Origin: Anaerobacillus alkalidiazotrophicus
Lineage (GTDB): Bacteria > Bacillota > Bacilli > Bacillales_H > Anaerobacillaceae
Assembly: GCF_001866055.1 (NCBI RefSeq)
Contig: NZ_MLQS01000027.1
Coordinates: 1 to 62,424, forward strand
Direction of reading: 5' to 3'
Length of the DNA: 62,424 bases
Positions 17,582 to 49,712 of the stretch are shown one piece after another. A program made the position numbers and the translations under genes. The first letter of the stretch is position 1. Every line of letters begins with the position of its first letter. The notes under the pieces were generated by a model, which had not been told where the DNA came from, did no database searches, and was given only the letters and a program-made list of their open reading frames with translations.

Positions 17582-18661
17582 TTATTCTGTGTTTCTTTCA
17601 TTAGCTTCTATATAAATACTTCTACTTGGAAACGCTACAGATACTCCATCACCTTCAAGAATTTCCATAATTTTTAAATTGATATCTTCTTTTACAGCCA
17701 AGAATTCTCCCCACACAGTTGTTTTTGTGAAAAAATATATGAAAATATCTAAGCTACTATCATTAAATACATCAAACTTCACAAAAATAGTTTCTTGATC
17801 AACTTCCGTGTGGTTTTTTAACAGTTCTTCTATATTCCTGATAACTAATTCAAGTTTTTCTTTAGGTGTTGAGTACGTCACACCCAAATGAAATGAAACT
17901 CTCCTTTTCCCCATCTTAGTCCAATTTGTAATAGGTTCATTAGAAAGAACCGAATTAGGAACCGTAACGATTGCTTGAGAAAATGTTCGAACTTTTGTAC
18001 TTCTAAACGTAATATCTTCAACCGTCCCTTCAACACTTGGCGTTTTTATCCAGTCACCAATTGAGAAAGGTTTTTCAGTAATAATTACTACTCCTCCAAA
18101 TAGATTAGCAATCGCATCTTTAGCTGCTAACGCAAATGCAAGTCCACCTAGACCTAACCCCGCTACAAAACCATTCACATCGTAATCCCATTCTCCAGCT
18201 ATGACACTTATGATTAATGCAATAATTATTACTCGAACTATTTTTGATAAAAATGGAAGTAAAATCTCATCTACTTCTAAATCTATTTTTTCACTTATCT
18301 TCTGAAACAATACAGACGAAGATGCCGATAAGTTAAATAAACCGTATCCTATAAGAAATATATTAAAAGAACGATACATTTGTAATATAAAAGCATCTGT
18401 TTGTTGTGTTAACGGCAAATATTTTAATGATAAATATGTACCTAAACCGACGAAAAATAACCGCACAGGACTTTCAAACGCTACAAATATGTTCGTTAGT
18501 AATTCTGTCGGAGTTTTTTTGGCAAACCTTAATAATAGTTTAAAAATATATTTTGTAAAAACTTTTCTAAAAACGTGAAACAAAATAAAAATACCGATGG
18601 CAATCCCAATATCCTCCCATTGGATTAACCAACCTAGTAAGTGTGAATATTCTTCAAACAT
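17582..18661 (-). CDS. MscS-family mechanosensitive channel (second paralogue)
   Basis: About five hydrophobic segments are followed by the MscS pore region GFVAGLGLGGLAFALAAKDA and the beta domain with GDWIKTPSVEGTVEDITFRS and VPNSVLSNEPITNW. Start chosen at the ATG at 18661, where GGGGG lies 7 bases upstream; 359 residues, longer than ykuT and like YbdG/YnaI-type channels with extra N-terminal helices. Confidence 0.9.
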   Translation of the reverse strand: MFEEYSHLLGWLIQWEDIGIAIGIFILFHVFRKVFTKYIFKLLLRFAKKTPTELLTNIFVAFESPVRLFFVGLGTYLSLKYLPLTQQTDAFILQMYRSFNIFLIGYGLFNLSASSSVLFQKISEKIDLEVDEILLPFLSKIVRVIIIALIISVIAGEWDYDVNGFVAGLGLGGLAFALAAKDAIANLFGGVVIITEKPFSIGDWIKTPSVEGTVEDITFRSTKVRTFSQAIVTVPNSVLSNEPITNWTKMGKRRVSFHLGVTYSTPKEKLELVIRNIEELLKNHTEVDQETIFVKFDVFNDSSLDIFIYFFTKTTVWGEFLAVKEDINLKIMEILEGDGVSVAFPSRSIYIEANERNTE

Positions 18662-18905
18662 AATGATCCCCCTTGCGTTACACAAACCTTACTCTAATAA
18701 ATCATATACCTAGGAACTACTTTAATGCAACAAGTTAAATTCAATAACCTTTCTTCTAATTTCAAAAAGCGAAGATCATTAATTTGTTGATTTTTCTTAA
18801 TATAATATTCAAACTTTACTCAATATTCATATATAAAATAAATTTGAATAATGATTAAATAAATATATGGTCAAACTGTGTAAATGCTTGATAGGAGGGT
18901 AGCGC

Positions 18906-19604
18906 ATGTATGCAATAGAAGCAAAGAACGTTTCAAAGAAATATTTCAGAGGGAACCATAAAAATATCTTATTTGAAGACATGTCGTTCCACGTTATAGA
19001 AGGAGAAATTGTCTTTATTAGTGGTGAGAATAAATCCGGGAAATCGACATTACTTAAAATGATTGCAGCTATGACACCGCCCAATCGAGGTAAAATTGAG
19101 GTATTAGGAAAGGATTTATTATTTATTGAAAATCGTTCAGATTGGCGTTTGAAACATATAGGCTTTTTAACAAGTGAAGATTGCTTAATTCCTTACTTAA
19201 CTATTCAGCAACAATTGTTAATGGGCCAAGATGACCAAAAATCGGATTTTGAGATATTTACTGAAGAAGCTAATTATATTTTATCAATTCTTGGTATTAG
19301 GGAAAAACAACTTACACAACTTCCTGATCAATTAAGTAAAACAGAACAATTAAAAATAACATTAGCAAGGGCTTTAATGACCAATCCTCGTATATTATTA
19401 TTAGATGATTTCACTAAATTTTTTAACTCTGATGACCGATTTGATATATACTGTACACTTATACAGTTTGTAAAAAAACAAAATATTACTTTAATAATTA
19501 CAGGAGAAACTGACCAATGTCCTATAGCAGACCGTATATTAAAGCTGGAAAATAAAAATCTGGTGGAATATGTAGATAATAATTATAAAGCGCTACTGCA
19601 TTAA
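18906..19604 (+). CDS. Orphan ABC-type ATPase with degenerate signature
   Basis: 232-residue ATP-binding protein. Walker A GENKSGKST is intact (about 39-47) and Walker B ILLLDD is present, but the usual glutamate after it is not (DDFT) and the signature motif reads LSKTEQ instead of LSGGQ. No permease gene adjoins it. GGAGGG precedes the ATG. It resembles export or cell-division-type ABC subunits in size. Weak hydrolysis or a regulatory role is inferred from the altered motifs. The gene is isolated between repeats and the MscS gene. Confidence 0.8.
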   Translation: MYAIEAKNVSKKYFRGNHKNILFEDMSFHVIEGEIVFISGENKSGKSTLLKMIAAMTPPNRGKIEVLGKDLLFIENRSDWRLKHIGFLTSEDCLIPYLTIQQQLLMGQDDQKSDFEIFTEEANYILSILGIREKQLTQLPDQLSKTEQLKITLARALMTNPRILLLDDFTKFFNSDDRFDIYCTLIQFVKKQNITLIITGETDQCPIADRILKLENKNLVEYVDNNYKALLH

Positions 19605-19738
19605 TAGTATAATTCCAATGCATCGATTATTACGAATAAGCACACTCGGATTGCCCATGAGTGCAAGCGTGTACTTTTTGGTTCTACGAGGAATGCTTTA
19701 TAGTAGTATTACTCAAACACACACACTATGAAACATTT

Positions 19739-19955
19739 AATAAAGCTGAACTTCAATCAGTGGGGGTTTCCCTTCATCCCCCACTGATTGTTAGTTTAAC
19801 TTATTCCACGGGCATAAGAATAACTAATCATCAGCTTTCGCTGATGAAAGTTATTTCTATATCGGACCTTTAGGGGCAGTTAATCCCCCACCTAAACTTT
19901 TCGATTTTCTTCCGTTTTGAGGTGGGGGTCTTACTGCCCCTTAAGAGTGGGATAA
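19739..19955. repeat. Composite hairpin repeat, families C and B, most complete copy
   Basis: Left part (family C): CAATCAGTGGGGG / CCCCCACTGATTG hairpin at about 19752-19790, then ATCATCAGC-TTTC-GCTGATGA. Right part (family B): GGGGCAGT (19873-19880) pairs with ACTGCCCC (19933-19940), enclosing CCCCCACCT / AGGTGGGGG. Similar pieces occur near 23396, 30894, 36160, 37614 and 45588. No coding sequence is supported here. The shape recalls IS200/IS605 end hairpins. Confidence 0.75.
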
Positions 19956-23479: not shown

Positions 23480-24688
23480 CTAAGTTGATGCATTTTCTTT
23501 TTTGCGCATTGCTTCTGGTACATAAACACAAAACGGTTCGCTTTCTAAATAGTCACCCGTTACAGCATATGTCCTTGATCGGGAACCGCCACAAACAAAA
23601 CGGAACTCACATATGCCACACTTTCCTTTATAAAGATCTGGGTTACGTAATTTCTTTAGTACTGGCGATTCTCGATAAATTTCAGCTAAGGATTTTTCTC
23701 TAACGTTACCAACGACTATGGGTAATAATCCACTAGGCATAACATCGCCTGTATGAGAGACAAATATAAACCCATTACCATCGTTCACTCCCTTTGGAGC
23801 ACGTTTTAAACCGTCGATTAAATAAGCAGTATCTGTAATTGAATCTTCATAGCGAATATTTTCTTTATCAACAAGCTTTTCACGATGTTTTTGCTGAATA
23901 ACAACCCTACGATAATGCTGTGCTGCAGTTGTTTTAATGTCGTAAGGAGCCGTTTTTCCTAATTCATATAGCCAACGAAATACTTTTTCATGTTCAGCCG
24001 GGGTTAAGCAATCGTCAATCTGCCCACGCCCAGTTGGCACAAGTAAAAAGATGTACCACATAACCGCTTTTAGCTCCCCAACTAATTTTGCCATTTTCTC
24101 AAGCGAATCATAATTATAACGGGAAATAACCGTATTAATTTGTAATGGCATATTTAATTCATTTAAGTATTTAATTTTTTCAACTGTTAGTTCAAATGAT
24201 CCTGTTGTTCCTCTGAAATGGTCATGGATTTCTGGAGTTGGTCCATCAAGACTAATCCCCCATCTAGAAAGTCCAACATCTTTAGCCTTCTGCATCGCTT
24301 CCTTTGTAACATTATCTGTAGCACTAGGCGTCATAGAAACTCGCATTCCCTTTTTCACAGCATATTCTGCAAGATCGTATAAATCTTTACGCATCATACA
24401 ATCTCCACCAGTGAAAACAAGCATCGGATTATTCATTTCATATATTTCATCAATTAGTTTAATACCCTCTTGATGTGATAACTCATCAGGATGTGGCTTT
24501 GTTTGAGCATCTGCACGGCAATGCACACATTTCAACTCACATGCCCTCGTTACTTCCCAAATAACTATAAAGGGGTCTTTGTTATAATCAATTGCTGCTC
24601 CTATTCCTCCTGGGTGACCTTTACCATGAGGGTGCCCACCACTTCTGTGTGGATGTCCCATTTCTTTTGGATGTCCCATTCCTTGCAT
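23480..24688 (-). CDS. Radical SAM/SPASM protein with His-rich N-terminus
   Basis: 402 residues. After a Gly-His-Pro-rich leader (GHPHRSGGHPHGKGHPGG), the radical SAM cluster motif CELKCVHC appears near residue 50, then TGGDC and ISLDG. The C-terminal SPASM-type region has CGICEFRFVCGGSRSR and a later Cys (EPFCVYVP). This layout and the GGSRSR motif place it with the AhbC/AhbD/NirJ and TIGR04053-like group, whose known members modify haem precursors or peptides. The His-rich leader may bind metal. Start taken at the ATG at 24688; a TTG/ATG four codons upstream is possible. Substrate unknown. Confidence 0.85.
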   Translation of the reverse strand: MQGMGHPKEMGHPHRSGGHPHGKGHPGGIGAAIDYNKDPFIVIWEVTRACELKCVHCRADAQTKPHPDELSHQEGIKLIDEIYEMNNPMLVFTGGDCMMRKDLYDLAEYAVKKGMRVSMTPSATDNVTKEAMQKAKDVGLSRWGISLDGPTPEIHDHFRGTTGSFELTVEKIKYLNELNMPLQINTVISRYNYDSLEKMAKLVGELKAVMWYIFLLVPTGRGQIDDCLTPAEHEKVFRWLYELGKTAPYDIKTTAAQHYRRVVIQQKHREKLVDKENIRYEDSITDTAYLIDGLKRAPKGVNDGNGFIFVSHTGDVMPSGLLPIVVGNVREKSLAEIYRESPVLKKLRNPDLYKGKCGICEFRFVCGGSRSRTYAVTGDYLESEPFCVYVPEAMRKKENAST

Positions 24689-24700
24689 TCTCATCACCAA

Positions 24701-30997: not shown

Positions 30998-31786
30998 TTA
31001 TAAAATTTTCGACAAGAATAGCTTCGTACGTTCGTGTTTAGGATTATCAAACAGCTCTTCTGGAGTACCCATTTCAACAATTTCACCTTGATCAAACAGG
31101 ATAATCCGGTCTGCCACCTCACGTGCAAAATTCATCTCATGTGTAACAACGATCATTGTCATTCCAGTACAACATAGCTCTTTCATAACATCTAAAACTT
31201 CTTTTACCATTTCAGGGTCTAATGCAGAAGTAGGTTCGTCAAAAAGCATGATCTTTGGTTGCATTGCTAGCGCTCTAGCAATAGCCACCCGTTGTTGTTG
31301 TCCACCAGATAATTGGCCAGGATATTTATGAGCTTGTTCAGGAATTCCAACTCGTTCTAATAGCTGCATACCAATTTCTTCTGCTTTTTTCTTTGGCCAT
31401 TTTCTTACCCAAATAGGTGATAACGTAATATTTTTTAATATTGTTAAATGAGGAAACAGGTTAAATGATTGGAATACCATCCCTGTTTCTTTACGAATAT
31501 TTTCAATGTTTGCTTTGTCATTTGATAATTCGATACCGTCTACAACAATCTTTCCTTTTTGAATTTCCTCCAAACCATTGATCGTCCGAATAAATGTTGA
31601 TTTCCCTGAACCAGATGGTCCTAACACTACAACAATTTCACCCTTCTTTATATCTACATTTACATCTTTTAATACATGTAATTCGTTTGAATACCATTTA
31701 TTTAAATTACGGCATGAAATAATATTTTCCCTCTCAGCTAACGGAATATCAGGGTTGAAGTCACTAAATATATTCGTATTTTCCAT
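30998..31786 (-). CDS. aapP: Amino-acid ABC transporter ATP-binding protein (AapP-like)
   Basis: Energises uptake of polar amino acids. Walker [10 protein letters not shown], signature LSGGQQQRV, Walker [13 protein letters not shown] and switch His in VVTHEM are all intact. 262 residues. GGAGGG lies 6 bases before the ATG. Last of four genes encoding a complete Aap-type importer. Confidence 0.93.
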
Positions 31787-31838
31787 TAAAATCCCTCCAA
31801 ATTTTATTTCTCTCTATAGTTCATCTGTACAAATGCTT

Positions 31839-33059
31839 TTAGCGGTGTTCCACACGAACAACTTCTTCTATACGTTTACTCGTCAGTGACATGGTATAAC
31901 TGAAAATCCAGAAAACTACAGCCACAAAGAGAAACACTTCCATTTGAGTCCCTAAAAATTTAGGATTAGATATAATCGTTCTACCAATCCCTAGTAATTC
32001 AACAATACCAACTACAGCAACAAGCGTCGTATCTTTAAAAATTGAAATTGATTGTCCAACCATAGAAGGAATTGTTACTCGTAATGCCTGAGGCAAGATA
32101 ACAAAAGTAGTCATTTTGACCGTACTCAACCCTAAAGCTTGAGCTGCTTCGTATTGACTTTTTGGGATAGATTGAAGTCCCCCACGTACATTTTCTGCTA
32201 TATATGCGGCATTAAAAAGTGTAAAAGCAACCATCGTACGTACTATATTATCAATTGTTACTCCAGCTGGTAAAAAGAGTGGCAACATTATTTGAGCCAT
32301 AAAAATAACGGTGATTAATGGTACCCCACGAATAATTTCAATATAAATAATACTCATCCACCGAATTACTGGAAGCTTACTCGTTCTTCCTAACGCTAAA
32401 AGTACACCAATAGGAAAAGAAAAGAGAATTGCTACTAAGGAAATGAGCAAGGTTAGTAAAAAGCCACCCCAAATATTCGTCTTTACCTCTGGTAATAAAC
32501 CAAATCCATTAAGAAGAAAAACTGTAATTGGAAAACAAAGTACCCAACCTAGCCACGTCCATTTACTTAATCCTTTAAATTTTCGTGCTAAAAACCAACC
32601 ACCAACTACTAAACAAATGTTAGTAAGCACCCATATTTTCGATTGTAATGTGACAAAAGGTAACAATAATGCTATCCCAAATAAAACTAAATAAACAGTA
32701 AAAAAGATTTGGATGATCCCTTTATTTATTCCATATGATAATCCTAATAACAAACTTACTACAGATAAACTTAACCAAACACGCCATAAGTCAGCTAACG
32801 GGTATTGTCCAACTAAAAGTAATTTGAAATTTCCCTCAACAACTGACCAATTAGCAGAAAAAAAGACCCATTCCAATGTAGACTTCACAATTAGAAAGAT
32901 AGCTATGGTAAGAATGATTGTTACAATACCATTTAACCAACTATTAAATAAATTCTCCTTCACCCATTTTAATGGCGTTATTTTCACCTGAGGTGGAAGT
33001 TTAACCTCTGAATTATTATTAATTCGATACTCTGGACTATAATTCGGTCCTACACTCAT
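31839..33059 (-). CDS. aapM: Amino-acid ABC transporter permease (AapM-like)
   Basis: 406-residue permease with about eight membrane segments. The conserved EAA-type loop is QYEAAQALGLSTVKMTTFVI. It is longer than ordinary HisM-type permeases because of extra N-terminal helices, as in rhizobial AapM. Seven bases after aapQ, so co-translated. Confidence 0.9.
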   Translation of the reverse strand: MSVGPNYSPEYRINNNSEVKLPPQVKITPLKWVKENLFNSWLNGIVTIILTIAIFLIVKSTLEWVFFSANWSVVEGNFKLLLVGQYPLADLWRVWLSLSVVSLLLGLSYGINKGIIQIFFTVYLVLFGIALLLPFVTLQSKIWVLTNICLVVGGWFLARKFKGLSKWTWLGWVLCFPITVFLLNGFGLLPEVKTNIWGGFLLTLLISLVAILFSFPIGVLLALGRTSKLPVIRWMSIIYIEIIRGVPLITVIFMAQIMLPLFLPAGVTIDNIVRTMVAFTLFNAAYIAENVRGGLQSIPKSQYEAAQALGLSTVKMTTFVILPQALRVTIPSMVGQSISIFKDTTLVAVVGIVELLGIGRTIISNPKFLGTQMEVFLFVAVVFWIFSYTMSLTSKRIEEVVRVEHR

Positions 33060-33066
33060 TCTTCAA

Positions 33067-34242
33067 TCACCTCTCTACCAATCTAGTTGCATTATTGTAT
33101 ATATTCATAATTAGCGAAGTAATTAAACTAATACTTAAGTAGACAATAAGCATGATTAATATAACTTCTATCGCTTTCCCAGATTGATTTAGTACAGTAT
33201 TACCCACACTAAACAGATCAGGATAACCAACCGCTACGGCTAAACTAGAGTTTTTAGCTAAGTTTAAATACTGACTCGTCACTGGCGGGATAATTGTTCG
33301 AATAGCCTGAGGGAAAGTAATGAAACGTAAAATTTTAAAATCACTTAATCCTAGTGCTTTCGCTGCTTCGATTTGACCCTTTTGAACAGATAGTATTCCT
33401 CCACGTACAATTTCAGTAATATAAGATGCCGTATAAAATACTAAACCAAACAAAATAGCTGCAAACTCTGGAGTAAAACGCAACCCACCGATAAATCTTA
33501 CTCCTTCAATTTCTGGTCTCGAAATCATAACTGGACCTTCTTTTGTGAGAATAAAAGTCAAAAGAGCAAAAATACCAATACATCCTAAAAACCATAGAGT
33601 TGGATACTTATTAATACCTGTTTCAAGTTGTTTATTCATCATTTTCTTCCAAACATATCTACCGACAAAAAGTGCAATTGAAACAACAATTAACCAAGTA
33701 ATTATACTAGCTGTAGTAGAAAACCACGGAAAAACGAGACCACGGTTACTAAAGTACATTCCCATTATCGGAGTTACATCTTGAATTCTTGGGAGTGTTA
33801 AGAAAACAGCAAAGTACCATATGAAAATTTGTACTAAAACAGGTGTATTTCTAAAGATCTCCACATACACACCCGATACCGAACGGGCAAGCCAGTTGTT
33901 AGAGAGTCTTGCAATTCCCATAACAATCCCAAGAATAGTAGAAATAAAAATACCAATTATCGTTACCTTTAATGTATTTGTAAAACCTACAAATAACGCC
34001 CATTGGTAGCTATTGGTTGGTGAGTACTCCAGTATTTTCTCCCCGATTGGAAAGTTAGCACTCGAACTTAAAAAAGAGAAACCAAATTTTAATCCAATTC
34101 TATTTAACCCATTAATCGCATTTTGAATAAAAAAATAAATAACTGCTACAACCAAAATGACAAACAATACTTGCCAAAATATATTTAAGACCTTAATATT
34201 TCTCCAAAAAGGAATTTTCTGCCTTGTTATCTCTTTTTCCAT
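33067..34242 (-). CDS. aapQ: Amino-acid ABC transporter permease (AapQ-like)
   Basis: 391-residue partner permease with the EAA-type motif QIEAAKALGLSDFKILRFIT and a long insertion between helices, typical of AapQ. Start chosen at the ATG at 34242, nine bases after AGGTG; a GTG at 34254 overlaps that site. Forms the heterodimeric channel with aapM. Confidence 0.9.
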   Translation of the reverse strand: MEKEITRQKIPFWRNIKVLNIFWQVLFVILVVAVIYFFIQNAINGLNRIGLKFGFSFLSSSANFPIGEKILEYSPTNSYQWALFVGFTNTLKVTIIGIFISTILGIVMGIARLSNNWLARSVSGVYVEIFRNTPVLVQIFIWYFAVFLTLPRIQDVTPIMGMYFSNRGLVFPWFSTTASIITWLIVVSIALFVGRYVWKKMMNKQLETGINKYPTLWFLGCIGIFALLTFILTKEGPVMISRPEIEGVRFIGGLRFTPEFAAILFGLVFYTASYITEIVRGGILSVQKGQIEAAKALGLSDFKILRFITFPQAIRTIIPPVTSQYLNLAKNSSLAVAVGYPDLFSVGNTVLNQSGKAIEVILIMLIVYLSISLITSLIMNIYNNATRLVER

Positions 34243-34328
34243 CTGTTTTCTCACCTTTCTCTCTCTTTGAACTTAATAATTTTCTTTGTCAATGATCCAT
34301 AAAGTAAAATGCCTCTCAGTAATGAGAA

Positions 34329-34365
34329 AGAGCCTGCCCCTACTGCGCAAAGGTTTGCAGGCTCT
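34329..34365 (-). terminator. Intercistronic hairpin after aapJ
   Basis: AGAGCCTGC / GCAGGCTCT, a 9-bp perfect stem with little T-run. Such hairpins after binding-protein genes usually stabilise the upstream message or cut down readthrough into the permeases. Confidence 0.7.
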
Positions 34366-34383
34366 ATTAATTTCATTACGATA

Positions 34384-35469
34384 TTATCTGAATGGTGGTG
34401 AGTATAATATACCGCCATCTGTGTAAAGCGCGTTGATACCACGCTCTAATTTAAAGGCACTTTCTTGACCTAAATTTCTTTCATAGATTTCTGAGAAGTT
34501 ACCTACTTGTTTAATAATGTTGTATACGAAGTCATTACTTAAACCTAATTGCTCACCATAGTTACTACCAATTCCTAAGAAGCGTTGGATATCAGGATCT
34601 TCTGTATTTAAGAAGTCGTCAACATTACTAGAAGTAATTCCAAATTCTTCTGCTTGCATCGTTGCAAATACAGCCCATTGCATGACATCAAAAAATTTAG
34701 AGTCACCATCTAAAACAGCTGGCCCAAGTGGTTCTTTAGAAAGAACTTCTGATAAGATTAAATGGCCATCAGGATCGACCATCGAAGTTAATCGTGCCAC
34801 TAATGCAGATTGGTCTGTAGTCCAAGCATCGATTGTTCCACTTTCATAAGCAGCGACAAGACTATCTTGATCTGCAAAAACAACTGCTTCAAAATCAATT
34901 CCTCGTTTTCTCATTTGATCCATTAAGTTCAACTCTGTTGTTGTACCTTGCTCTACTCCAATTCTAGTTCCTTCTAGTTCTTCAATTGACGTGATACCAC
35001 TGTCTCTTGGAACCATCATCCCTTGACCATCATAGAAAGTTGTCGGTCCGAAAGCTAAACCAACTTCTACATCACGAGAAAGTGTCCATGTTGTGTTACG
35101 GATAAGTATATCAACTTCACCTGTTTGTAGTGCTGTAAAACGTTCTTGTGCGGATAGCGGTCTATACTCAATCGCATCGGCATCTCCAAAAATCGCCGCT
35201 GCTACAACCTTACCGAAATCTACATCAAATCCTACATAGCTACCGTCAGTATCTACATAACCAAAACCTGGTAATTGGTTATTTGTTCCTAAGATTAAAT
35301 TCCCTCTGTTCTTCACTTCATCTAACTTAGAACCAGTACTTGAAGCGCTAGTTTCAGAAGTTGTATCAGAGTCACTTGGTGTAGCAGCATCTTCGCTAGA
35401 GCAACCTACAGTAACCACTAAGGCTACTAAAATCATACTCAAAAGCATTTTCATTTTTTTCGAAATCAT
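34384..35469 (-). CDS. aapJ: Amino-acid-binding lipoprotein (AapJ-like)
   Basis: Extracellular receptor of the importer. The signal peptide ends in a lipobox (VTVGC, cysteine near residue 23), followed by a Ser/Thr/Asp-rich linker. The SBP_bac_3 domain then begins (LDEVKNRGNLILGTNNQLPG), with RNTTWTLSRDVEVGLAF and YGEQLGLSNDFVYNI. Start chosen at the ATG at 35469 with GGGGGAC upstream; 361 residues. First gene of the operon. An operator-like palindrome lies 116 bases upstream. Confidence 0.93.
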   Translation of the reverse strand: MISKKMKMLLSMILVALVVTVGCSSEDAATPSDSDTTSETSASSTGSKLDEVKNRGNLILGTNNQLPGFGYVDTDGSYVGFDVDFGKVVAAAIFGDADAIEYRPLSAQERFTALQTGEVDILIRNTTWTLSRDVEVGLAFGPTTFYDGQGMMVPRDSGITSIEELEGTRIGVEQGTTTELNLMDQMRKRGIDFEAVVFADQDSLVAAYESGTIDAWTTDQSALVARLTSMVDPDGHLILSEVLSKEPLGPAVLDGDSKFFDVMQWAVFATMQAEEFGITSSNVDDFLNTEDPDIQRFLGIGSNYGEQLGLSNDFVYNIIKQVGNFSEIYERNLGQESAFKLERGINALYTDGGILYSPPFR

Positions 35470-35584
35470 GTAATTGTCCCCCAATCAATTTTTTATATTT
35501 TAATAGGATACATTATTTATAAACTATTTCGAAAATTTTGTTTTAAATTTTGGAAGATAATCTAATATTGTTTTTGACGGGAGA

Positions 35585-37554: not shown

Positions 37555-37610
37555 AATAGCCTCTCGGAATAAATCTAGAGATTAATGAGGATTTATTCCG
37601 AGAGGCTATT
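37555..37610. repeat. Long perfect hairpin, 21-bp arms
   Basis: AATAGCCTCTCGGAATAAAT with its exact complement at 37590-37610 around a 14-base loop (one further base pairs in each arm). It lies between two leftward genes next to a family C hairpin and could be an extra terminator or a small mobile palindrome. Confidence 0.7.
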
Positions 37611-37613
37611 ATA

Positions 37614-37672
37614 TAAAGCTAAACTTCAATCAGTGGGGGTTTTCCTTCATCGCCCACTGATTGTTAGCCTGT
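37614..37672. repeat. Family C hairpin; probable terminator of the COG0523 gene
   Basis: CTTCAATCAGTGGGGGTTTT with CGCCCACTGATTGTTAG, the same arms as the copy at 19739. It ends 8 bases before the GTPase stop. Confidence 0.7.
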
Positions 37673-37680
37673 TGATAAAA

Positions 37681-38598
37681 TTAAACGTATAATTGATTTA
37701 CATGCTTTTTTATTTCATCTTGATCTAGATTTTCACCAATAAAAACGAGTGTTGGTGTATATGTTTCTTTTATAGAGTATCTTTCAAACACCGGATCACC
37801 GTATGCATAATTAAATAAAAAAAGGCCCGGTGTTTCTGTTATATAAACGAAGCCTTTTGCACGGTACAATATGCCTTGAAAATGTTCTAACCACTCAACT
37901 AATTTCATTCTTTCTATAGGTCTTTCAAGAGCAACTTTCACTGTTCTTAAATGTAAGTGGTTATGAACATGCGTTGGCTCGGACTGCTCAGTTTTATGCT
38001 CATTAGTTTCGGTCATATACAATAACTTAAGATCTATTTGTGCATAAGTACTTGATATTTTTCTAGCGTTACTATTTATTTGATCTAACTTTCCTAATAA
38101 TTGTTCTACTACAGAATTTTCAAGTTTATCAATTTTATTTAATACTATTATGTCTGCAAACTTGATTTGTTCAACAAGTAATTTTTTTATCTTATTATTC
38201 ATTTTACCTTCATACCACTGCAATGCATTCACAAGCGTTATTACAGCACGTACATTAATATTGGCTACTAACAACGGATGCGTACAGGCATCAATAATTT
38301 CAAGAGGGTGCGCTGCACCTGTAGCTTCGATATAAATAACATCTAGCTGATAATTTTCTAGTAGTCTTTTTATTTGCAAACTTAACTCACCTTGCAAAGT
38401 ACAACAAACACAACCATTTAATAATTCTTTTAAAGGTACCTCATCTGGAACGATGGCTGAATCAATACTAATTGAACCAAGTTCATTCATAATGACGCCT
38501 ACTCTTCTTCCTTGCTTTTGTTCGAATTGTATCAGTTCCTTTAACAGAGTACTTTTGCCACTTCCTAAAAATCCACTTAAAACAAATACATCAACCAT
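37681..38598 (-). CDS. COG0523 (CobW/ZagA-like) GTPase metallochaperone
   Basis: G3E GTPase of 305 residues. Walker A GFLGSGKST is at 9-17, the family signature metal site GCVCC at 62-66, and NKID near 155. A His-rich linker (THVHNHLHLR) precedes the CobW C-terminal domain. COG0523 proteins deliver zinc or other metals; the Bacillus member YciC/ZagA is Zur-controlled. A good Zur-box-like site lies 67-87 bases upstream, supporting a zinc role during zinc starvation. Shorter than ZagA. Confidence 0.92.
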   Translation of the reverse strand: MVDVFVLSGFLGSGKSTLLKELIQFEQKQGRRVGVIMNELGSISIDSAIVPDEVPLKELLNGCVCCTLQGELSLQIKRLLENYQLDVIYIEATGAAHPLEIIDACTHPLLVANINVRAVITLVNALQWYEGKMNNKIKKLLVEQIKFADIIVLNKIDKLENSVVEQLLGKLDQINSNARKISSTYAQIDLKLLYMTETNEHKTEQSEPTHVHNHLHLRTVKVALERPIERMKLVEWLEHFQGILYRAKGFVYITETPGLFLFNYAYGDPVFERYSIKETYTPTLVFIGENLDQDEIKKHVNQLYV

Positions 38599-38945: not shown

Positions 38946-39854
38946 ATGCGGATCTCTCAATGTTTTTCAGGTGCAACTGCAGTTACTAAAGGATTAAATG
39001 GTGATTATTTTTTAGCGGTCGATAAAGGGATTTTACTAATTAGAAAGGATGGTACAGAGAAAACACTAATTCAATTAGAAAATCGCATTTTAGACTTAAC
39101 CTTTATTGACTCTATCATTTACGGTGTTGGTGATAATGGAACTTTCATTCGAAGCACTGATTATGGTCACACTTGGGATGTATCAACACTACCTACTACT
39201 GGATCTATGTGGAGTATTTGTTCTAACAAAAATGGAACTGTTGTCACTCATGGGAATACTGTTTTATTCCTTTCTCTCGACTTCGGTAATACTTGGAAAA
39301 CGTTACACCCTTTCCAAGGTCTAATTGGTAGTAAACCATCCATTCGTTCTCTCTTCTTAGAAGGTCCGTACGTTTTTGTTGGAACAAAAGTCCATCGACT
39401 ACATGGTGGAATCTGGCGAGTTGATTTAGAGCACTATGAAACAATTAGAATTAAAAAAGATACAAGAATGATTGCTTCCATCTTAAAACATAAACAATAC
39501 ATTGTTTCAGCTACTGGAACTTGTAAAGGCCACAAAGGAACAATCGAATATTGTCAGGCTACACCAACATTTTCCCAAACGTATGAATGGGAAACCTGTG
39601 AGAGTGATTGTCAAGAGGGCTGTTATTTAGACTTATCTGAAAGTGATGGCTATCTTTATACAACTACCTCACAAGATGAAAAAGGTGTTGGAAAAGTTTT
39701 ACGAGTGTATATTGATGAAAAAAAGGTAGTCCCATGTGCGATTGTTCATGGCCATGGTTGGCGAGTCTCAAATCAACAAAGTGAGTTTCTCGTTGCCGGA
39801 TTGTATACATCGCTTTACACAAATTCGCAATTTCAGCACTTTATAAACCATTAA
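38946..39854 (+). CDS. Fur-controlled cytosolic beta-propeller (BNR/Asp-box) protein
   Basis: 302 residues, no signal peptide. Two Asp-box motifs, STDYGHTW and SLDFGNTW, and regularly spaced YLYTTTSQD / YIVSATGT strands indicate a beta-propeller. The C-terminal third has a Cys/His cluster (GTCKGHKGTIEYC, ETCESDCQEGCY, HGHGWR) that could bind metal or a cofactor. AAGGAGG lies 6 bases before the ATG. It leads a Fur-controlled unit with flavodoxin, so it is probably made in iron starvation. No characterised homologue comes to mind. Confidence 0.8.
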   Translation: MRISQCFSGATAVTKGLNGDYFLAVDKGILLIRKDGTEKTLIQLENRILDLTFIDSIIYGVGDNGTFIRSTDYGHTWDVSTLPTTGSMWSICSNKNGTVVTHGNTVLFLSLDFGNTWKTLHPFQGLIGSKPSIRSLFLEGPYVFVGTKVHRLHGGIWRVDLEHYETIRIKKDTRMIASILKHKQYIVSATGTCKGHKGTIEYCQATPTFSQTYEWETCESDCQEGCYLDLSESDGYLYTTTSQDEKGVGKVLRVYIDEKKVVPCAIVHGHGWRVSNQQSEFLVAGLYTSLYTNSQFQHFINH

Positions 39855-40393: not shown

Positions 40394-41413
40394 TTATAAA
40401 TTGCTATTTGGTTTTTCTTCTAAGGTTTCACCTGCTCGAACTAGTTCCCGATAATGAAGCATCATTCGATCTAGAGTCTCTAATCGTTGCAAGTTATTTT
40501 TTTCTTCTTGGCTTGTCTCTATGATTTTATAAATTCCACCATTTTTTATTACAATTCTTCTATGACCGATCAGTGCTAAAATTGGATCATGGGTAGCCAT
40601 TAAGACAATTTTGTCTTTTTGTACTAACAAATCTAATGCTTTTTTTCGATCAATCCCTGCATTTTCGATTTCATCGATTAATACAATCGGTGCTCCACTC
40701 AAAAATGCAGTATCGCTAATCATTAGGGCACGAGATTGCCCACCACTAAGTGCCGTAATCGGTGTATCTTTACGAAAGGTTTCGCCAGCCAATTCATTAG
40801 CATAAGCGATAATTTCCCGTACCTTTTCATCTACATTCTCAACCATTCTACTTTCAGCATGCATTTTAATAAACTCAAAAACCGTTAGATCCATGACAAA
40901 ATTCATATTTTGTGATAGTTGTGCAACTAGCTTATGCTCTATAGAGAAACGCCATTCCATAGGTGGAACTTTTCCATTTATGAGAATTTGTCTTTTGGTA
41001 GGAGTATCTTTTTGAGCCATCCATTCAATATCTGCTAACAATCTACTTTTCCCTGAACCAGTCGGCCCTACGATGGAGATAATTTCTCCAGCTCTCATCT
41101 GGAGTATTAGCTTTTCTGGAATACCTTCTTTATTTTGTCCCCCTAGAATTGTAATTGACTTAACTTGTAAGTCATTCCCTTCCTTCACTAGTCTCATATG
41201 TTCAATAAAAAGTTCAAATTGCTCAAGTAAATCTGCTCGTTCAACGCCTAAATCTTCCATAAGGATAGTATCGATATTTGAAATGTACTGTTGTAATGTA
41301 CAATTCTCTTTGGCAAATGGTAGACCCATTGTCTCAAAAAAATCCTTCCCATATGGATACTCACTGTCGATTTGAGCTAGTTTCATATCTTTTAAACTCT
41401 TTAAATTGCTCAT
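40394..41413 (-). CDS. Soluble ABC ATPase with N-terminal helical domain
   Basis: 339 residues, no membrane segment and no permease in the operon. Residues 1-75 form a small helical domain (YPYGKDFFETMGLPF, TLQQYISNIDT, DLGVERADLLEQF) similar in pattern to DUF1858/DUF542-type metal-enzyme-associated domains but without their cysteines. The ATPase core follows: Walker A GPTGSGKS 116-123, signature LSGGQ 222-226, Walker B VLIDEIE, switch His MATHDP. The start at 41413 follows GGGTG. Last gene of a three-gene operon; probably a conformational motor on a cytosolic partner. Confidence 0.8.
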   Translation of the reverse strand: MSNLKSLKDMKLAQIDSEYPYGKDFFETMGLPFAKENCTLQQYISNIDTILMEDLGVERADLLEQFELFIEHMRLVKEGNDLQVKSITILGGQNKEGIPEKLILQMRAGEIISIVGPTGSGKSRLLADIEWMAQKDTPTKRQILINGKVPPMEWRFSIEHKLVAQLSQNMNFVMDLTVFEFIKMHAESRMVENVDEKVREIIAYANELAGETFRKDTPITALSGGQSRALMISDTAFLSGAPIVLIDEIENAGIDRKKALDLLVQKDKIVLMATHDPILALIGHRRIVIKNGGIYKIIETSQEEKNNLQRLETLDRMMLHYRELVRAGETLEEKPNSNL

Positions 41414-41449
41414 AACGATCGCACCCTTTAATAAATTTTGCACTTCCTA

Positions 41450-42145
41450 CTATTCGAAAGAAATTTTACGAATATTTCCCATTTGAAAATCTTGACCAAT
41501 ATGTGTTTCACCTAGACAATAAGAACACAAAGCTGCCGGCATAACAAATCTCAGTTTTCTTCCTTCAAGAGTTGCTATTTTATTTCCTTTCATTAATATC
41601 GTCATCAATTCTTGCGCACCTTGGCCAGTAATCCCATTAACATGCATGATAATTGCTTTAGGATTTGCTTGTCTTATTTTAAATGTAAAAACTTCTCTCT
41701 CTGCTTGAGAAACAATATCTCCTTTTGTCACGATAACAATGTCGGCCATTTTTAACATTGGACCAACCTTTTTGGGAGTATGAATTCCCATTAGGTTATC
41801 AATTACACAAACTGCTGTAATATCTTTAATGTGAGGAGAACATCGATTACATAACCCAGCACTCTCAGTTATTAAAAAATCAAACGTGTTTTTGAGCCCC
41901 CATTTCACACAGTCTTCTATATTACTAATGAAATAATGATCAGGACATAGATTCCCTGAAAGTCCTACCTTCACAGGGATTTTCTGTTTTTTGTATAAGT
42001 CATCGTCATTGGTCATTAAACAATCAAATTTAACAACCCCGACTTTAGATTGTTTTTGCTTTAAGGCAGCAGCTACCTTTAATATTACCGCTGTTTTTCC
42101 AGATGAAGGGGGTCCCGAGAATGTTATAAGTTTCACTTCTCTCAC
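41450..42145 (-). CDS. HypB/CooC-like GTPase with two CxxC pairs
   Basis: 231 residues. P-loop GPPSSGKT at 11-18, FDCLMTNDD switch region, ESAGLCNRC and a base-recognition-like TKGD. Eight cysteines, including CxxC pairs at 99-102 and 207-210, suggest metal or Fe-S binding. This architecture fits the SIMIBI class (HypB, UreG, CooC, CobW), which loads Ni, Co or clusters into enzymes. Its ATG directly follows the stop of the binding-protein gene. No hydrogenase or CODH gene is nearby. Confidence 0.8.
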   Translation of the reverse strand: MREVKLITFSGPPSSGKTAVILKVAAALKQKQSKVGVVKFDCLMTNDDDLYKKQKIPVKVGLSGNLCPDHYFISNIEDCVKWGLKNTFDFLITESAGLCNRCSPHIKDITAVCVIDNLMGIHTPKKVGPMLKMADIVIVTKGDIVSQAEREVFTFKIRQANPKAIIMHVNGITGQGAQELMTILMKGNKIATLEGRKLRFVMPAALCSYCLGETHIGQDFQMGNIRKISFE

Positions 42146-43132
42146 CTACTTACTCATATAAGATTGTAAGAAAATATCATTTAATTTAGGCTTAAGTTTC
42201 GCCAAGTCATTTTCATGGATAAAATCCCATCCAAGCCATTTGAAAGAGGTGTCATCATTTAATTTATGATTTTTGTTTGAGTGAATAGATGGAAAACCAA
42301 TCTTCACAAACAATTCCCCTACTTCATCACTAAACAAAAAGTCGTTCATAATTTTTGATTGCTTATTACGAATGTCTTTCACTAGAAGAGTAATAGGATT
42401 AACAATTGCTCCATCTTTTGGCCAGACAATTGATATATTCTCGTTACATTTCACCAATTTTGCAAAAGAATACGGAATAGCGCTGATTGAAGGCCCTTCG
42501 CCTCTTTTTCCAGCCATCTTGACCATTTGCGAAGGATGCAAACTCCAGTTCACAGATTTTCCTAATTTATTTATTCCTTCTTCTCCGTGGTCTTTATACG
42601 TATTTAATAAAATCCCTTCACAAAACTCAATTTTCTTTTCTTCTTTTGTAGGGTTACTACCACGAATTGCTAGCTTTTTTTCGAATTCAGGCTCTAATAA
42701 ATCTGACCATTTTTCTGGAAGTGGCAAACTTTTATCGTTCGTTCGATCAACTAATAAGACAGTCGGGTTAAAACCAATGACCGAATATAAATTAAACGGA
42801 TCAATCAAATCAAGGTCAAGCCAAAGTGGATTCATAGATTCTGGTACACTCGCTTGAATACTTTTGCTCTCTTTACATTTATTTATAATATTTTGATAAT
42901 AAAAGGAATTAAAACCTGGAGCCATGATCATATCAGGTAAAACATTAAGGTCATTTTTCTCTTTCAACTCTGTAAAAAATGATAATCCATTATTTGCATT
43001 ACCTACTAGTGAGTAATGAAGTGTAGACACGTCTTCACATTTTTCAAGCTCTTTAACATATGCTCCCAAAGCTTCTTGAAATGGTACTTTTAGTGCACAT
43101 GGTAACAAACCTAAGAAATCAATATTTTCCAT
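42146..43132 (-). CDS. Cytosolic periplasmic-binding-type protein (FbpA/AfuA-like fold)
   Basis: 328 residues resembling class II ABC substrate-binding proteins: SLVGNANNGLSFFTELKE, PDMIMAPGFNSFYY, LPEKWSDLLEPEFEKKLAIR, WPKDGAIVNPITLLV. Relatives bind ferric iron, thiamine, polyamines or oxyanions. There is no signal peptide or lipobox, so it should stay in the cytoplasm, which is unusual. Start chosen at the ATG at 43132, nine bases after GGGG. First gene of the operon; it probably presents a ligand to the GTPase/ATPase pair. Confidence 0.8.
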   Translation of the reverse strand: MENIDFLGLLPCALKVPFQEALGAYVKELEKCEDVSTLHYSLVGNANNGLSFFTELKEKNDLNVLPDMIMAPGFNSFYYQNIINKCKESKSIQASVPESMNPLWLDLDLIDPFNLYSVIGFNPTVLLVDRTNDKSLPLPEKWSDLLEPEFEKKLAIRGSNPTKEEKKIEFCEGILLNTYKDHGEEGINKLGKSVNWSLHPSQMVKMAGKRGEGPSISAIPYSFAKLVKCNENISIVWPKDGAIVNPITLLVKDIRNKQSKIMNDFLFSDEVGELFVKIGFPSIHSNKNHKLNDDTSFKWLGWDFIHENDLAKLKPKLNDIFLQSYMSK

Positions 43133-43333
43133 CGTTATCAACCCCTAACATTCTTTTGAAGAAAGAATATCATATTTTTATAACGATTTTTTTTGAAAAT
43201 ATACTATTCTGATAGACCCTTCCTTATCAACCCCTTGTCAGTACAGTGTTTAACACGTTCGAAAAGTTGTCATGTGAGAAAACATCCCGATTAGTAAACT
43301 TATTACAATCACCCACCTGTTGTAATACAAAAA

Positions 43334-43363
43334 GACGCTACCTAATTAGTAAGGTAACGTCTA
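43334..43363 (-). terminator. Terminator of aguA-aguB
   Basis: AGACGTTACCT / AGGTAGCGTCT on the minus strand with a G-T pair, followed by TTTTTG. The rest of the 43142-43499 gap includes TTGATA...TAGTAT (18-base spacer, minus strand, near 43200-43230) as a possible promoter for the 42146 operon. Confidence 0.65.
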
Positions 43364-45423: not shown

Positions 45424-45587
45424 ACCCAATACCCTCTTTTTCTTAATATTTCCCATGCTTTCTTGCATGTTTAGCTACTACAATATAATAATAGTTTTTG
45501 TCGAAAAATGATAGTTCTATTTCTCTACTAAAAACGTATTTTCGTACCAATTTTTCTATATAACTACCATTAAGTAAGTTTCAGTTA

Positions 45588-45731
45588 ATAAAGCTGAACT
45601 TCAATCAGTGGGGTTTTCCTCTCTCCCCTCTGAATATTAATTTAACTTATCGGCCACGGCCACCTAACTTTTCAATTTTCATACGTTTTGAAGTGGAGTC
45701 TGACTGGCACTTAAAAGTGGGATAAAAAAAT
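45588..45731. repeat. Composite family C plus B repeat, decayed
   Basis: AATAAAGCTGAACTTCAATC followed by a mutated GTGGGG hairpin, then a degraded family B part ending AAAAGTGGGATAAAAA. Same order and spacing as the intact copy at 19739-19955. Confidence 0.6.
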
Positions 45732-49637: not shown

Positions 49638-49712
49638 TGGTGACTCGTATTGGACTTGAACCAACGACCCCTTGCCTGTCAAGCAAGTGCTCTCCCACTG
49701 AGCTAACGAGTC
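49638..49712 (-). tRNA. tRNA-Val (anticodon GAC)
   Basis: 75 nt including encoded CCA. Acceptor stem GACTCGT/ACGAGTC, D-arm GCTC AGTGGGA GAGC, anticodon stem CTTGC/GCAAG with loop TTGACAG giving anticodon GAC, T-arm GTTGG TTCAAGT CCAAT. Isolated tRNA gene next to integrase debris. Confidence 0.95.

What the first reader, a model, noticed from the sequence alone, without database searches (positions are those of the whole stretch)
40394..43132. Three-gene cytosolic module: binding protein + HypB/CooC-like GTPase + ABC ATPase without a membrane component
The sequence shows three tightly spaced leftward genes. The first looks like a periplasmic ligand-binding protein but has no signal peptide. 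The second is a SIMIBI-type GTPase with two CxxC pairs. The third is a full ABC ATPase with intact motifs and an extra N-terminal helical domain, but no permease. In known families, GTPases like HypB/CooC and UreG load metals, FbpA-type folds bind metal ions or oxyanions, and soluble ABC ATPases act as mechanical switches. Inference: a cytosolic metal- or cofactor-insertion machine, with the binding protein as carrier. I know no characterised system with this composition.
Basis: partly seen in the sequence, partly recalled or inferred. Interest (0 to 1): 0.82.

Follow-up and report, generated by a model that had tools for sequence, protein, structure and literature searches.

The report
Cytosolic GTPase–ABC ATPase metal-handling module
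Three neighbouring genes encode a binding protein that stays inside the cell, a nickel-chaperone-like GTPase and an ABC ATPase with no membrane partner; the set recurs across many anaerobic microbes and probably handles metals or metal centres, but its job is not yet known.

Summary
Observation confirmed: an intact, tightly spaced SBP_bac_6 protein without signal peptide, a HypB/UreG-like GTPase and a soluble ABC ATPase with an N-terminal helical domain. The set is conserved: among 136 GTPase genes compared (window included) the ABC gene adjoins in 128; the third gene is an SBP (100), a PF04060 Fe-S protein (23) or DUF364 (4). Three contexts: clade A, beside Hcp, nrfHA and a small zinc-ribbon protein; group B (with the window), FecCD/Peripla_BP_2 importer genes in 30 of 48; group C, coenzyme M genes in 7 of 23. 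The four nearest of the loci held sit directly downstream of a FecBCD-type importer; the window's copy has none beside it. The family was not found in 299 genomes of the nearest genome's order, so horizontal acquisition is likely. The GTPase keeps a CPDH motif aligned with HypB's metal site and two invariant CxxC pairs. Best reading: a cytosolic NTP-driven metal or metallocentre delivery machine with a swappable third subunit; metal and client unknown. What looks like the Fe-S version is noted in print, role unknown; my searches found no description of the SBP version.

The parts
42146..43132 (-). Cytosolic SBP_bac_6 (type II periplasmic-binding fold) protein, 328 aa, no signal peptide, no DUF1858 domain
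   Evidence: PF13343 200.8 bits, no other Pfam family at E 0.1; AlphaFold2 mean pLDDT 91.8; hydrophobicity check; start chosen by RBS, the ORF extends to TTG 43141
41450..42136 (-). HypB/UreG-like SIMIBI GTPase, 228 aa
   Evidence: PF02492 46.1 bits; profile hits to HypB 2hf8/2wsm and UreG; AlphaFold2 mean pLDDT 88.0
41936..41947 (-). C64-P-D-H67 motif of the GTPase, aligned with the Cys-His region of HypB
   Evidence: 100% in groups A, B and C; alignment to 2hf8
41840..41851 (-). CxxC pair 1 (C96-x-R-C99) of the GTPase, switch II region
   Evidence: 100% in groups A, B and C
41516..41527 (-). CxxC pair 2 (C204-x-x-C207) of the GTPase, C-terminal
   Evidence: 100% in groups A, B and C
40394..41413 (-). 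Soluble ABC-type ATPase, 339 aa
   Evidence: PF00005 58.6 bits; motifs; the ORF extends to GTG 41443
41156..41413 (-). N-terminal helical extension of the ABC ATPase, probably DUF1858-like
   Evidence: profile comparison of 38 ABC N-termini with 62 N-termini of long SBPs: probability 92 local, 75 global, pairwise E 7e-7 and 3e-6; no Pfam hit on its own
43333..43362 (-). Terminator-like hairpin between aguB and the trio, suggesting that the trio is its own transcription unit
   Evidence: consensus scan, 11-pair stem followed by TTTT; 4 such sites found against 2.1 expected

Best explanation
The trio is a membrane-free, nucleotide-driven metal or metallocentre delivery machine. The GTPase is a HypB/UreG-type metal-gated switch (shown: fold, motif and profile kinship; inferred: metal binding). 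The ABC ATPase, presumably a dimer, drives hand-over or remodelling (shown: intact motifs, no permease in the unit; inferred: action). The third subunit presents the ligand and can be swapped: SBP, DUF364 protein or Fe-S protein (shown: exchange between loci; inferred: role). In the window's group the SBP would receive a metal or metal complex that a FecBCD-type importer has brought into the cell and pass it via the GTPase to a client. Related copies would serve metal centres in nitrite/NO metabolism (clade A) and coenzyme M synthesis (part of group C).
For: Core conserved: ABC beside GTPase in 128 of 136; third gene SBP 100, Fe-S protein 23, DUF364 4, none seen 9. GTPase C64, H67, C96, C99, C204 and C207 at 100% in all three groups, with the first motif aligned to HypB. 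FecCD or Peripla_BP_2 within 10 kb in 30 of 48 B against 0 of 65 A. The four nearest relatives among the loci held (L202, L168, L203, L204) all have FecE-like, Peripla_BP_2 and FecCD genes directly upstream (Pfam for L202, in-house HMM for L168 and for L021, the same contig as L204, by reading for L203); three of the binding proteins were scored and are nearest to IsdE, below its cut-off. Metal-linked neighbours in B: ModE domain in L023 and L127 (80.8 and 50.5 bits, below the cut-off of 98.5), AnfO PF09582 in L025 and 4 loci by in-house HMM, three of them close relatives, DUF364 'putative heavy-metal chelation' in L148 and 4 of 48 B. No export signals. SBP profile matches PLP-, aminoethylphosphonate- and iron-binding proteins.
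Against: In the window no FecCD/Peripla_BP_2 importer, Hcp, nitrite reductase or molybdenum enzyme was seen in 38 of the 47 ORFs of 120 aa or more that were scanned; its own genome is not held. Nearer or equal relatives listed (P0123, P0124, P0125) could not be fetched, so their context is unseen. No metal has been measured. ModA/ModB alone is not significantly enriched in B over A (6/48 against 2/65, p 0.07). Loci are related, so p-values overstate independence. Metal identity is unclear and may differ between contexts. Whether the FbpA iron ligands are kept was not tested.
Confidence: 0.5

Rival explanations
1. The module repairs or matures metal centres under nitrosative stress, with the hybrid cluster protein (Hcp) or nitrite reductase as client; the window's copy is a relative of that function.
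For: Hcp within 10 kb in 21 of 65 clade A loci against 1 of 48 B; Hcp, NrfA, NrfH or Rrf2 in 33 of 65 against 1 of 48. In 249 genomes of one phylum, 33 of 35 with the GTPase family (groups not separated) have Hcp at E 1e-100 or better against 145 of 214 without (counted by hand from the lists; p 9e-4). DUF1858 in the clade A SBP that was tested.
Against: 145 Hcp-bearing genomes of that sample lack the GTPase, so Hcp does not need it. The genome of clade A locus L063 gave no Hcp match (a draft assembly). The window is not in clade A. Passages seen of two papers on Hcp regulation do not mention the trio.
Confidence: 0.15
2. The cargo is not a metal but sulfur or an oxyanion, and the NTPases power a reductive or sulfur-transfer step, as suggested by part of group C.
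For: Seven of 23 C loci carry HcyBio (PF01837, 'sulfur-incorporation'), cysteate synthase-like or sulfopyruvate decarboxylase-like genes within 10 kb. The third subunit there is a PF04060 Fe-S protein. PMC12068725 notes an ATPase, a Ni2+ binding GTPase and a COG2000 Fe-S protein beside coenzyme M genes, role unknown.
Against: None of the 48 B or 65 A loci has these genes within 10 kb, and 16 of 23 C loci do not either; the SBP and importer context of B is unexplained by it.
Confidence: 0.15
3. It is an ordinary ABC importer whose permease lies elsewhere or was lost, and the GTPase is a bystander.
For: SBP and ABC ATPase resemble importer parts; FecCD permeases lie within 10 kb of 20 of 48 B copies.
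Against: No signal peptide in the SBP family. FecCD importers beside B copies come with Peripla_BP_2 proteins, and 18 of 20 have a FecE-like ATPase. No FecCD within 10 kb of 65 clade A copies. The GTPase adjoins the ABC gene in 128 of 136.
Confidence: 0.07
4. It is a sensor or regulatory switch that reports cytosolic metal or ligand level to partner proteins, not a delivery machine.
For: Regulators are frequent neighbours (CRP family in 11 of 65 A and 7 of 48 B, Rrf2 in 7 of 65 A; ModE-like in 2 B); the soluble composition fits a switch.
Against: Two separate NTPases with full catalytic motifs and invariant metal-type cysteines suit work rather than sensing (inference); no output domain was found.
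Confidence: 0.08

Closest known systems
HypB / UreG nickel-chaperone GTPases
   Same: SIMIBI GTPase core; a Cys-(Pro-Asp)-His motif aligned to the HypB Cys-His region; small soluble protein
   Different: 53.3 and 32.1 bits against curated cut-offs of 121.2 and 204.2; two invariant CxxC pairs; partnered by an ABC ATPase and an SBP, not by HypA or UreE/F/H (partners recalled)
ATPase + Ni2+ binding GTPase + COG2000 Fe-S protein beside coenzyme M genes in methanogens (PMC12068725; figure legend and passages seen)
   Same: Probably the same GTPase and ABC families: six loci of the archaeal sample with coenzyme M genes (L152, L153, L158, L159, L161, L165) match profile A1 at E 5.7e-56 or better. Role unknown in print
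   Different: Third gene is an Fe-S protein, no SBP; the ABC ATPases seen there are about 250-265 aa and lack the N-terminal extension. That these loci hold the very genes of the paper is inferred from gene descriptions
FbpABC/AfuABC-type ferric importers (SBP_bac_6)
   Same: Binding-protein fold; ABC ATPase
   Different: No signal peptide, no permease, an added GTPase
FecBCD/BtuCDF-type metal-complex importers
   Same: Neighbours of 30 of 48 group B copies
   Different: Have their own binding protein and ATPase; the trio is an extra set
SUF system (soluble ABC ATPase SufC; recalled)
   Same: ABC ATPase working without a membrane domain in metallocluster biology
   Different: No SufB/SufD in the unit; GTPase and SBP instead

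Membership tests
HypB | Score above the NCBIfam TIGR00073 cut-off (121.2 bits) | tested here: not met
   53.3 bits
HypB | Dimer-interface metal site: Cys-His pair and a switch II Cys (site recalled) | tested here: inconclusive
   CPDH aligns with the Cys-His region of 2hf8 and C96/C99 lie near its switch II Cys in the profile alignment; metal binding not testable here
HypB | Hydrogenase or HypA genes nearby | tested here: not met
   None in the 38 of 47 window ORFs of 120 aa or more that were scanned; relatives not scored for this
UreG | Score above the TIGR00101 cut-off (204.2 bits) | tested here: not met
   32.1 bits
CooC (taken here as a CbiA/ParA-type NTPase) | CbiA domain at gathering score | tested here: not met
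   PF01656 17.7 bits against 25.4
SBP-dependent ABC importer (FbpABC type) | SBP_bac_6 domain | tested here: met
   200.8 bits
SBP-dependent ABC importer (FbpABC type) | Export signal on the binding protein | tested here: not met
   None in the window by hydrophobicity and lipobox check; 2 of 87 family members over threshold. No dedicated signal-peptide predictor was run
SBP-dependent ABC importer (FbpABC type) | Permease in the unit | tested here: not met
   None in the three-gene unit; FecCD within 10 kb in 0 of 65 A and 20 of 48 B, with a FecE-like ATPase in 18 of those 20
SUF Fe-S assembly | SufB/SufD scaffold | tested here: not met
   No such domain among Pfam hits of the trio and five neighbours
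GTPase-ABC core family of anaerobes | GTPase with C64PDH67 and two CxxC pairs beside an ABC ATPase of the same subfamily | tested here: met
CoM-linked set of PMC12068725 | COG2000/PF04060 Fe-S third gene | tested here: not met
   The window has an SBP instead

The most novel reading that the evidence does not exclude
A previously undescribed class of cytosolic machine in anaerobic bacteria and archaea: a fixed GTPase plus soluble ABC ATPase engine that takes interchangeable ligand subunits (cytosolic binding protein, DUF364 protein, or Fe-S protein) and so serves different metal or cofactor clients, from metal-complex import to nitrite/NO metabolism and coenzyme M synthesis.
Probability: 0.35. 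Interest if true: 0.88.

Novelty: new variant of a known kind. Interest (0 to 1): 0.7.

Why it matters
The GTPase has 7435 database relatives at E 1e-3 or better; the best 80 genome loci, from many bacterial phyla and two archaeal records, are 66-72% identical to the query. Source names seen are 'GTP-binding protein', 'hypothetical protein' or a HypB-derived 'Ni2+-binding GTPase', none of them tested. If the reading holds, anaerobes share an energy-driven cytosolic metal or cofactor delivery machine that touches metal import, nitrosative defence and coenzyme M biosynthesis, and the swap of the third subunit gives a direct handle for finding clients. It would also show a binding-protein fold and an ABC ATPase repurposed for work inside the cell.

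Tried and rejected
Ideas dropped. (1) Hcp maturase as the general function: Hcp occurs in 145 of 214 genomes without the GTPase. (2) Ni-CODH or double-cubane client: an HGD-D protein and activase were seen near one locus only (L202), and the other loci were not searched for them; the passages of PMC6344411 concern NitT/TauT transporters. (3) Riboswitch beside the trio: at gathering scores Rfam finds only a tRNA at 49641-49712 in the window; relatives were not scanned. (4) The window's transporter at 30998-35484 as partner: it is of the polar amino-acid type; its parts match a like transporter in L128 (25-44%) and, for the ATPase, other ABC ATPases at 35-50%. (5) Empty site in G002: aguAB is there without the trio, but the left flank differs, so no clean empty site was shown. 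(6) Print: ten searches with the terms MJ0120; double-cubane and GTPase; HcpR regulon; DUF1858 with Hcp; HypB with hydroxylamine reductase; AnfO with molybdate; coenzyme M with DUF39; cysteate synthase; COG1840/COG0378/COG2000/DUF1858; Ni2+-binding GTPase/solute-binding protein/Hcp/FecCD. Of the five papers opened (PMC12915319, PMC5701242, PMC6344411, PMC12068725, PMC12713407) I saw found passages only, and only PMC12068725 names what looks like the SBP-less version; for all other papers I saw the search listing.

Limits of the counts. Class A is a tree clade, C means a PF04060-like gene within 10 kb, B is the rest (it includes a few methanogen copies with long SBPs that fall just outside clade A). 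152 GTPase ORFs were found; rows from 17 short loci repeating longer ones were dropped, leaving 136, window included. Several loci come from one genome or close relatives, loci differ in length, and some ORFs were masked by antisense ORFs in high-GC DNA, so 'no ABC' (8) and 'none' (9) are upper bounds. Neighbour families were called by in-house HMMs from seeds, most but not all of the seeds checked in Pfam. The FecE-like and FecCD genes of L203 and the DUF1858-like extension of most long SBPs were named by reading, not by a family search. In one search the top three rows are engineered RecA fusions whose single stretches are not significant.
Full report
What is there. Three minus-strand ORFs lie in tight succession: 42146-43141, 41450-42145 and 40394-41443. 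A terminator-like hairpin lies between them and the upstream aguA/aguB genes. The first gene is SBP_bac_6, the second a cobW/HypB/UreG-type GTPase, the third an ABC_tran ATPase. The window's ATPase has Walker A, LSGGQ, Walker B and H-loop motifs; in 117 family members these patterns match in 114, 117, 105 and 115. The binding protein shows no export signal, nor do its relatives: 2 of 87 pass a hydrophobicity threshold that 36 of 42 periplasmic neighbours pass.

The unit is conserved. A protein search with the GTPase returned 7435 relatives at E 1e-3 or better. The ABC gene adjoins the GTPase in 128 of 136, with a gap of at most 60 bp in 116 of 125 measured. The third gene is an SBP in 100, a PF04060-type Fe-S protein in 23, a DUF364 protein in 4 and not seen in 9. 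A search with the window's SBP returned 83 proteins; besides the window's own, ten of their contig lengths equal those of GTPase hits (for example 4201318, 437775, 247831 and 238634 bases). In whole-genome samples the GTPase family occurs in 35 of 249 genomes of the phylum of Clostridium magnum and 37 of 148 of that of Methanospirillum stamsii.

Three contexts. Clade A (65 rows; support 100/98 in the IQ-TREE tree, 0.87 in the FastTree tree) mostly has SBPs of about 410 aa whose N-terminal part is DUF1858 in the one tested (PF08984 in L069) and in many of the long hits. A small protein with a strongly conserved cysteine pattern was found in 36 loci, near 35 of 65 A rows. Hcp lies within 10 kb in 21 of 65, NrfA or NrfH in 12 of 65. 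Group B (48 rows, including the window) has FecCD or Peripla_BP_2 genes within 10 kb in 30 of 48, against 0 of 65 in A (p 3.4e-15, not corrected for kinship). B loci also include a ModE domain (L023 and L127, below the curated cut-off), AnfO (L025; 4 loci by in-house HMM, three closely related), ModA/ModB (6 of 48, against 2 of 65 in A, p 0.07) and DUF364 (4 of 48). Group C (23 rows) has the Fe-S protein; 7 of 23 lie within 10 kb of HcyBio, cysteate synthase-like or sulfopyruvate decarboxylase-like genes, the coenzyme M pathway of methanogens; the other 16 do not. A 2025 paper notes genes for an ATPase, a Ni2+ binding GTPase and a COG2000 domain Fe-S protein often colocalised with coenzyme M genes, with unknown role (PMC12068725, figure legend); I take these to be group C, by description.

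Where the window belongs. In the 118-row tree the window's GTPase groups with B rows (96/75, a weak fork). Among the loci held its nearest trio is L202 (SBP 55%, GTPase 77%, ABC 69%). L202 lies on a 4201318-base contig, the size listed for the Clostridium aceticum record. L168, L203 and L204 come next; L204 is the same contig as L021. All four place the SBP directly after a FecCD permease preceded by Peripla_BP_2 and FecE-like genes (Pfam for FecCD and Peripla_BP_2 of L202). The Peripla_BP_2 proteins of L202, L168 and L203 score 81-94 bits to IsdE, far below its cut-off of 298.65. Other near relatives (P0123; Natranaerovirga, P0124; Niallia, P0125) could not be fetched. The window has no such importer beside the trio; its transporter at 30998-35484 is of the polar amino-acid type. 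Flanking genes (pyruvate dehydrogenase, YkyA, RNase J1, DapH) suggest a Bacillaceae-type chromosome (gene order recalled). The GTPase family was found in 0 of 299 genomes of the nearest genome's order at E 1e-40, a null without a positive control inside that sample; weaker hits in 14 of 101 relatives (best E 1.3e-8) look like other GTPases of the superfamily. A genome of the same genus, G002, has aguAB without the trio. The SBP occurs in Niallia sp. 01092 (44%), so the window is not the only Bacillus-like host. Horizontal acquisition is the likely history.

How it may work. The GTPase profile matches HypB (2hf8, E 1.8e-12) and UreG; C64-P-D-H67 falls on HypB's Cys-His region and C96/C99 near its switch II cysteine. 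These residues and C204/C207 are at 100% in groups A, B and C. That HypB uses these residues for metal is recalled. The SBP profile matches PLP-, aminoethylphosphonate- and iron-binding proteins, so its ligand cannot be read from kinship. The ABC N-terminal extension resembles the N-terminal DUF1858-type domain of long SBPs (probability 92 local, 75 global). The best-supported reading is a fixed GTPase-ABC engine with a swappable ligand subunit, delivering metal or building or repairing metal centres; in the window's group probably downstream of metal-complex import. Metal binding, complex formation, direction and client are inferred.

Against. No metal or activity is known. Contexts differ enough that metal may be wrong for group C, where sulfur incorporation is the neighbouring chemistry. 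Hcp does not depend on the module: among 249 genomes, Hcp (E 1e-100 or better) was found in 33 of 35 with the GTPase family and 145 of 214 without, and the genome of A locus L063 gave no Hcp match. Enrichments are not phylogenetically corrected, and many loci show none of the scored neighbours (for example 25 A loci lack Hcp, Nrf, CRP and Rrf2 genes).

Verdict. Observation confirmed; interpretation partly supported. I file the trio as a new variant of GTPase-driven metallochaperone-like systems, not as HypB, UreG, an ABC importer or SUF, each of which fails a tested defining feature.

Noticed in passing
window 37681-38598 (-): A CobW-type GTPase with a CobW_C domain (PF02492, PF07683) and a GCVCC motif lies about 2 kb from the trio; only superfamily kin of the trio GTPase.
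   Followed up: partly
window 23480-24700 (-): Radical SAM/SPASM protein of family TIGR04053 (504.2 bits against a cut-off of 395); next best family is haem b synthase AhbD, below its cut-off (369.4 against 500).
   Followed up: no
window 37601-37667 and about 45571-45730: Two short stretches that match many dispersed places in genome G001, with a perfect 21-bp inverted repeat at 37555-37610: possible dispersed repeats of the genus.
   Followed up: partly
L066:5941-6189 and 35 other loci: An uncharacterised ~80-aa protein with a strongly conserved pattern GC..C..C..C..C..VTPC beside clade A trios; zinc-ribbon and HypA hits below cut-off.
   Followed up: partly
L168:2745-5157, L203:14541-17097, L204:12724-15047: A second, divergent GTPase-ABC-SBP set (GTPase 46% and 38% identical to the window's in L203 and L204) sits in the same locus as the classic trio.
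   Followed up: partly
L202:1209-3081 and 17775-19799: An HGD-D (2-hydroxyglutaryl-CoA dehydratase type) protein, a BcrAD activase and a DUF2229 protein lie within about 10 kb of the window's nearest relative trio.
   Followed up: partly
window 38946-39854 (+): A BNR/Ycf48-like beta-propeller protein below all curated cut-offs, beside a flavodoxin gene.
   Followed up: no
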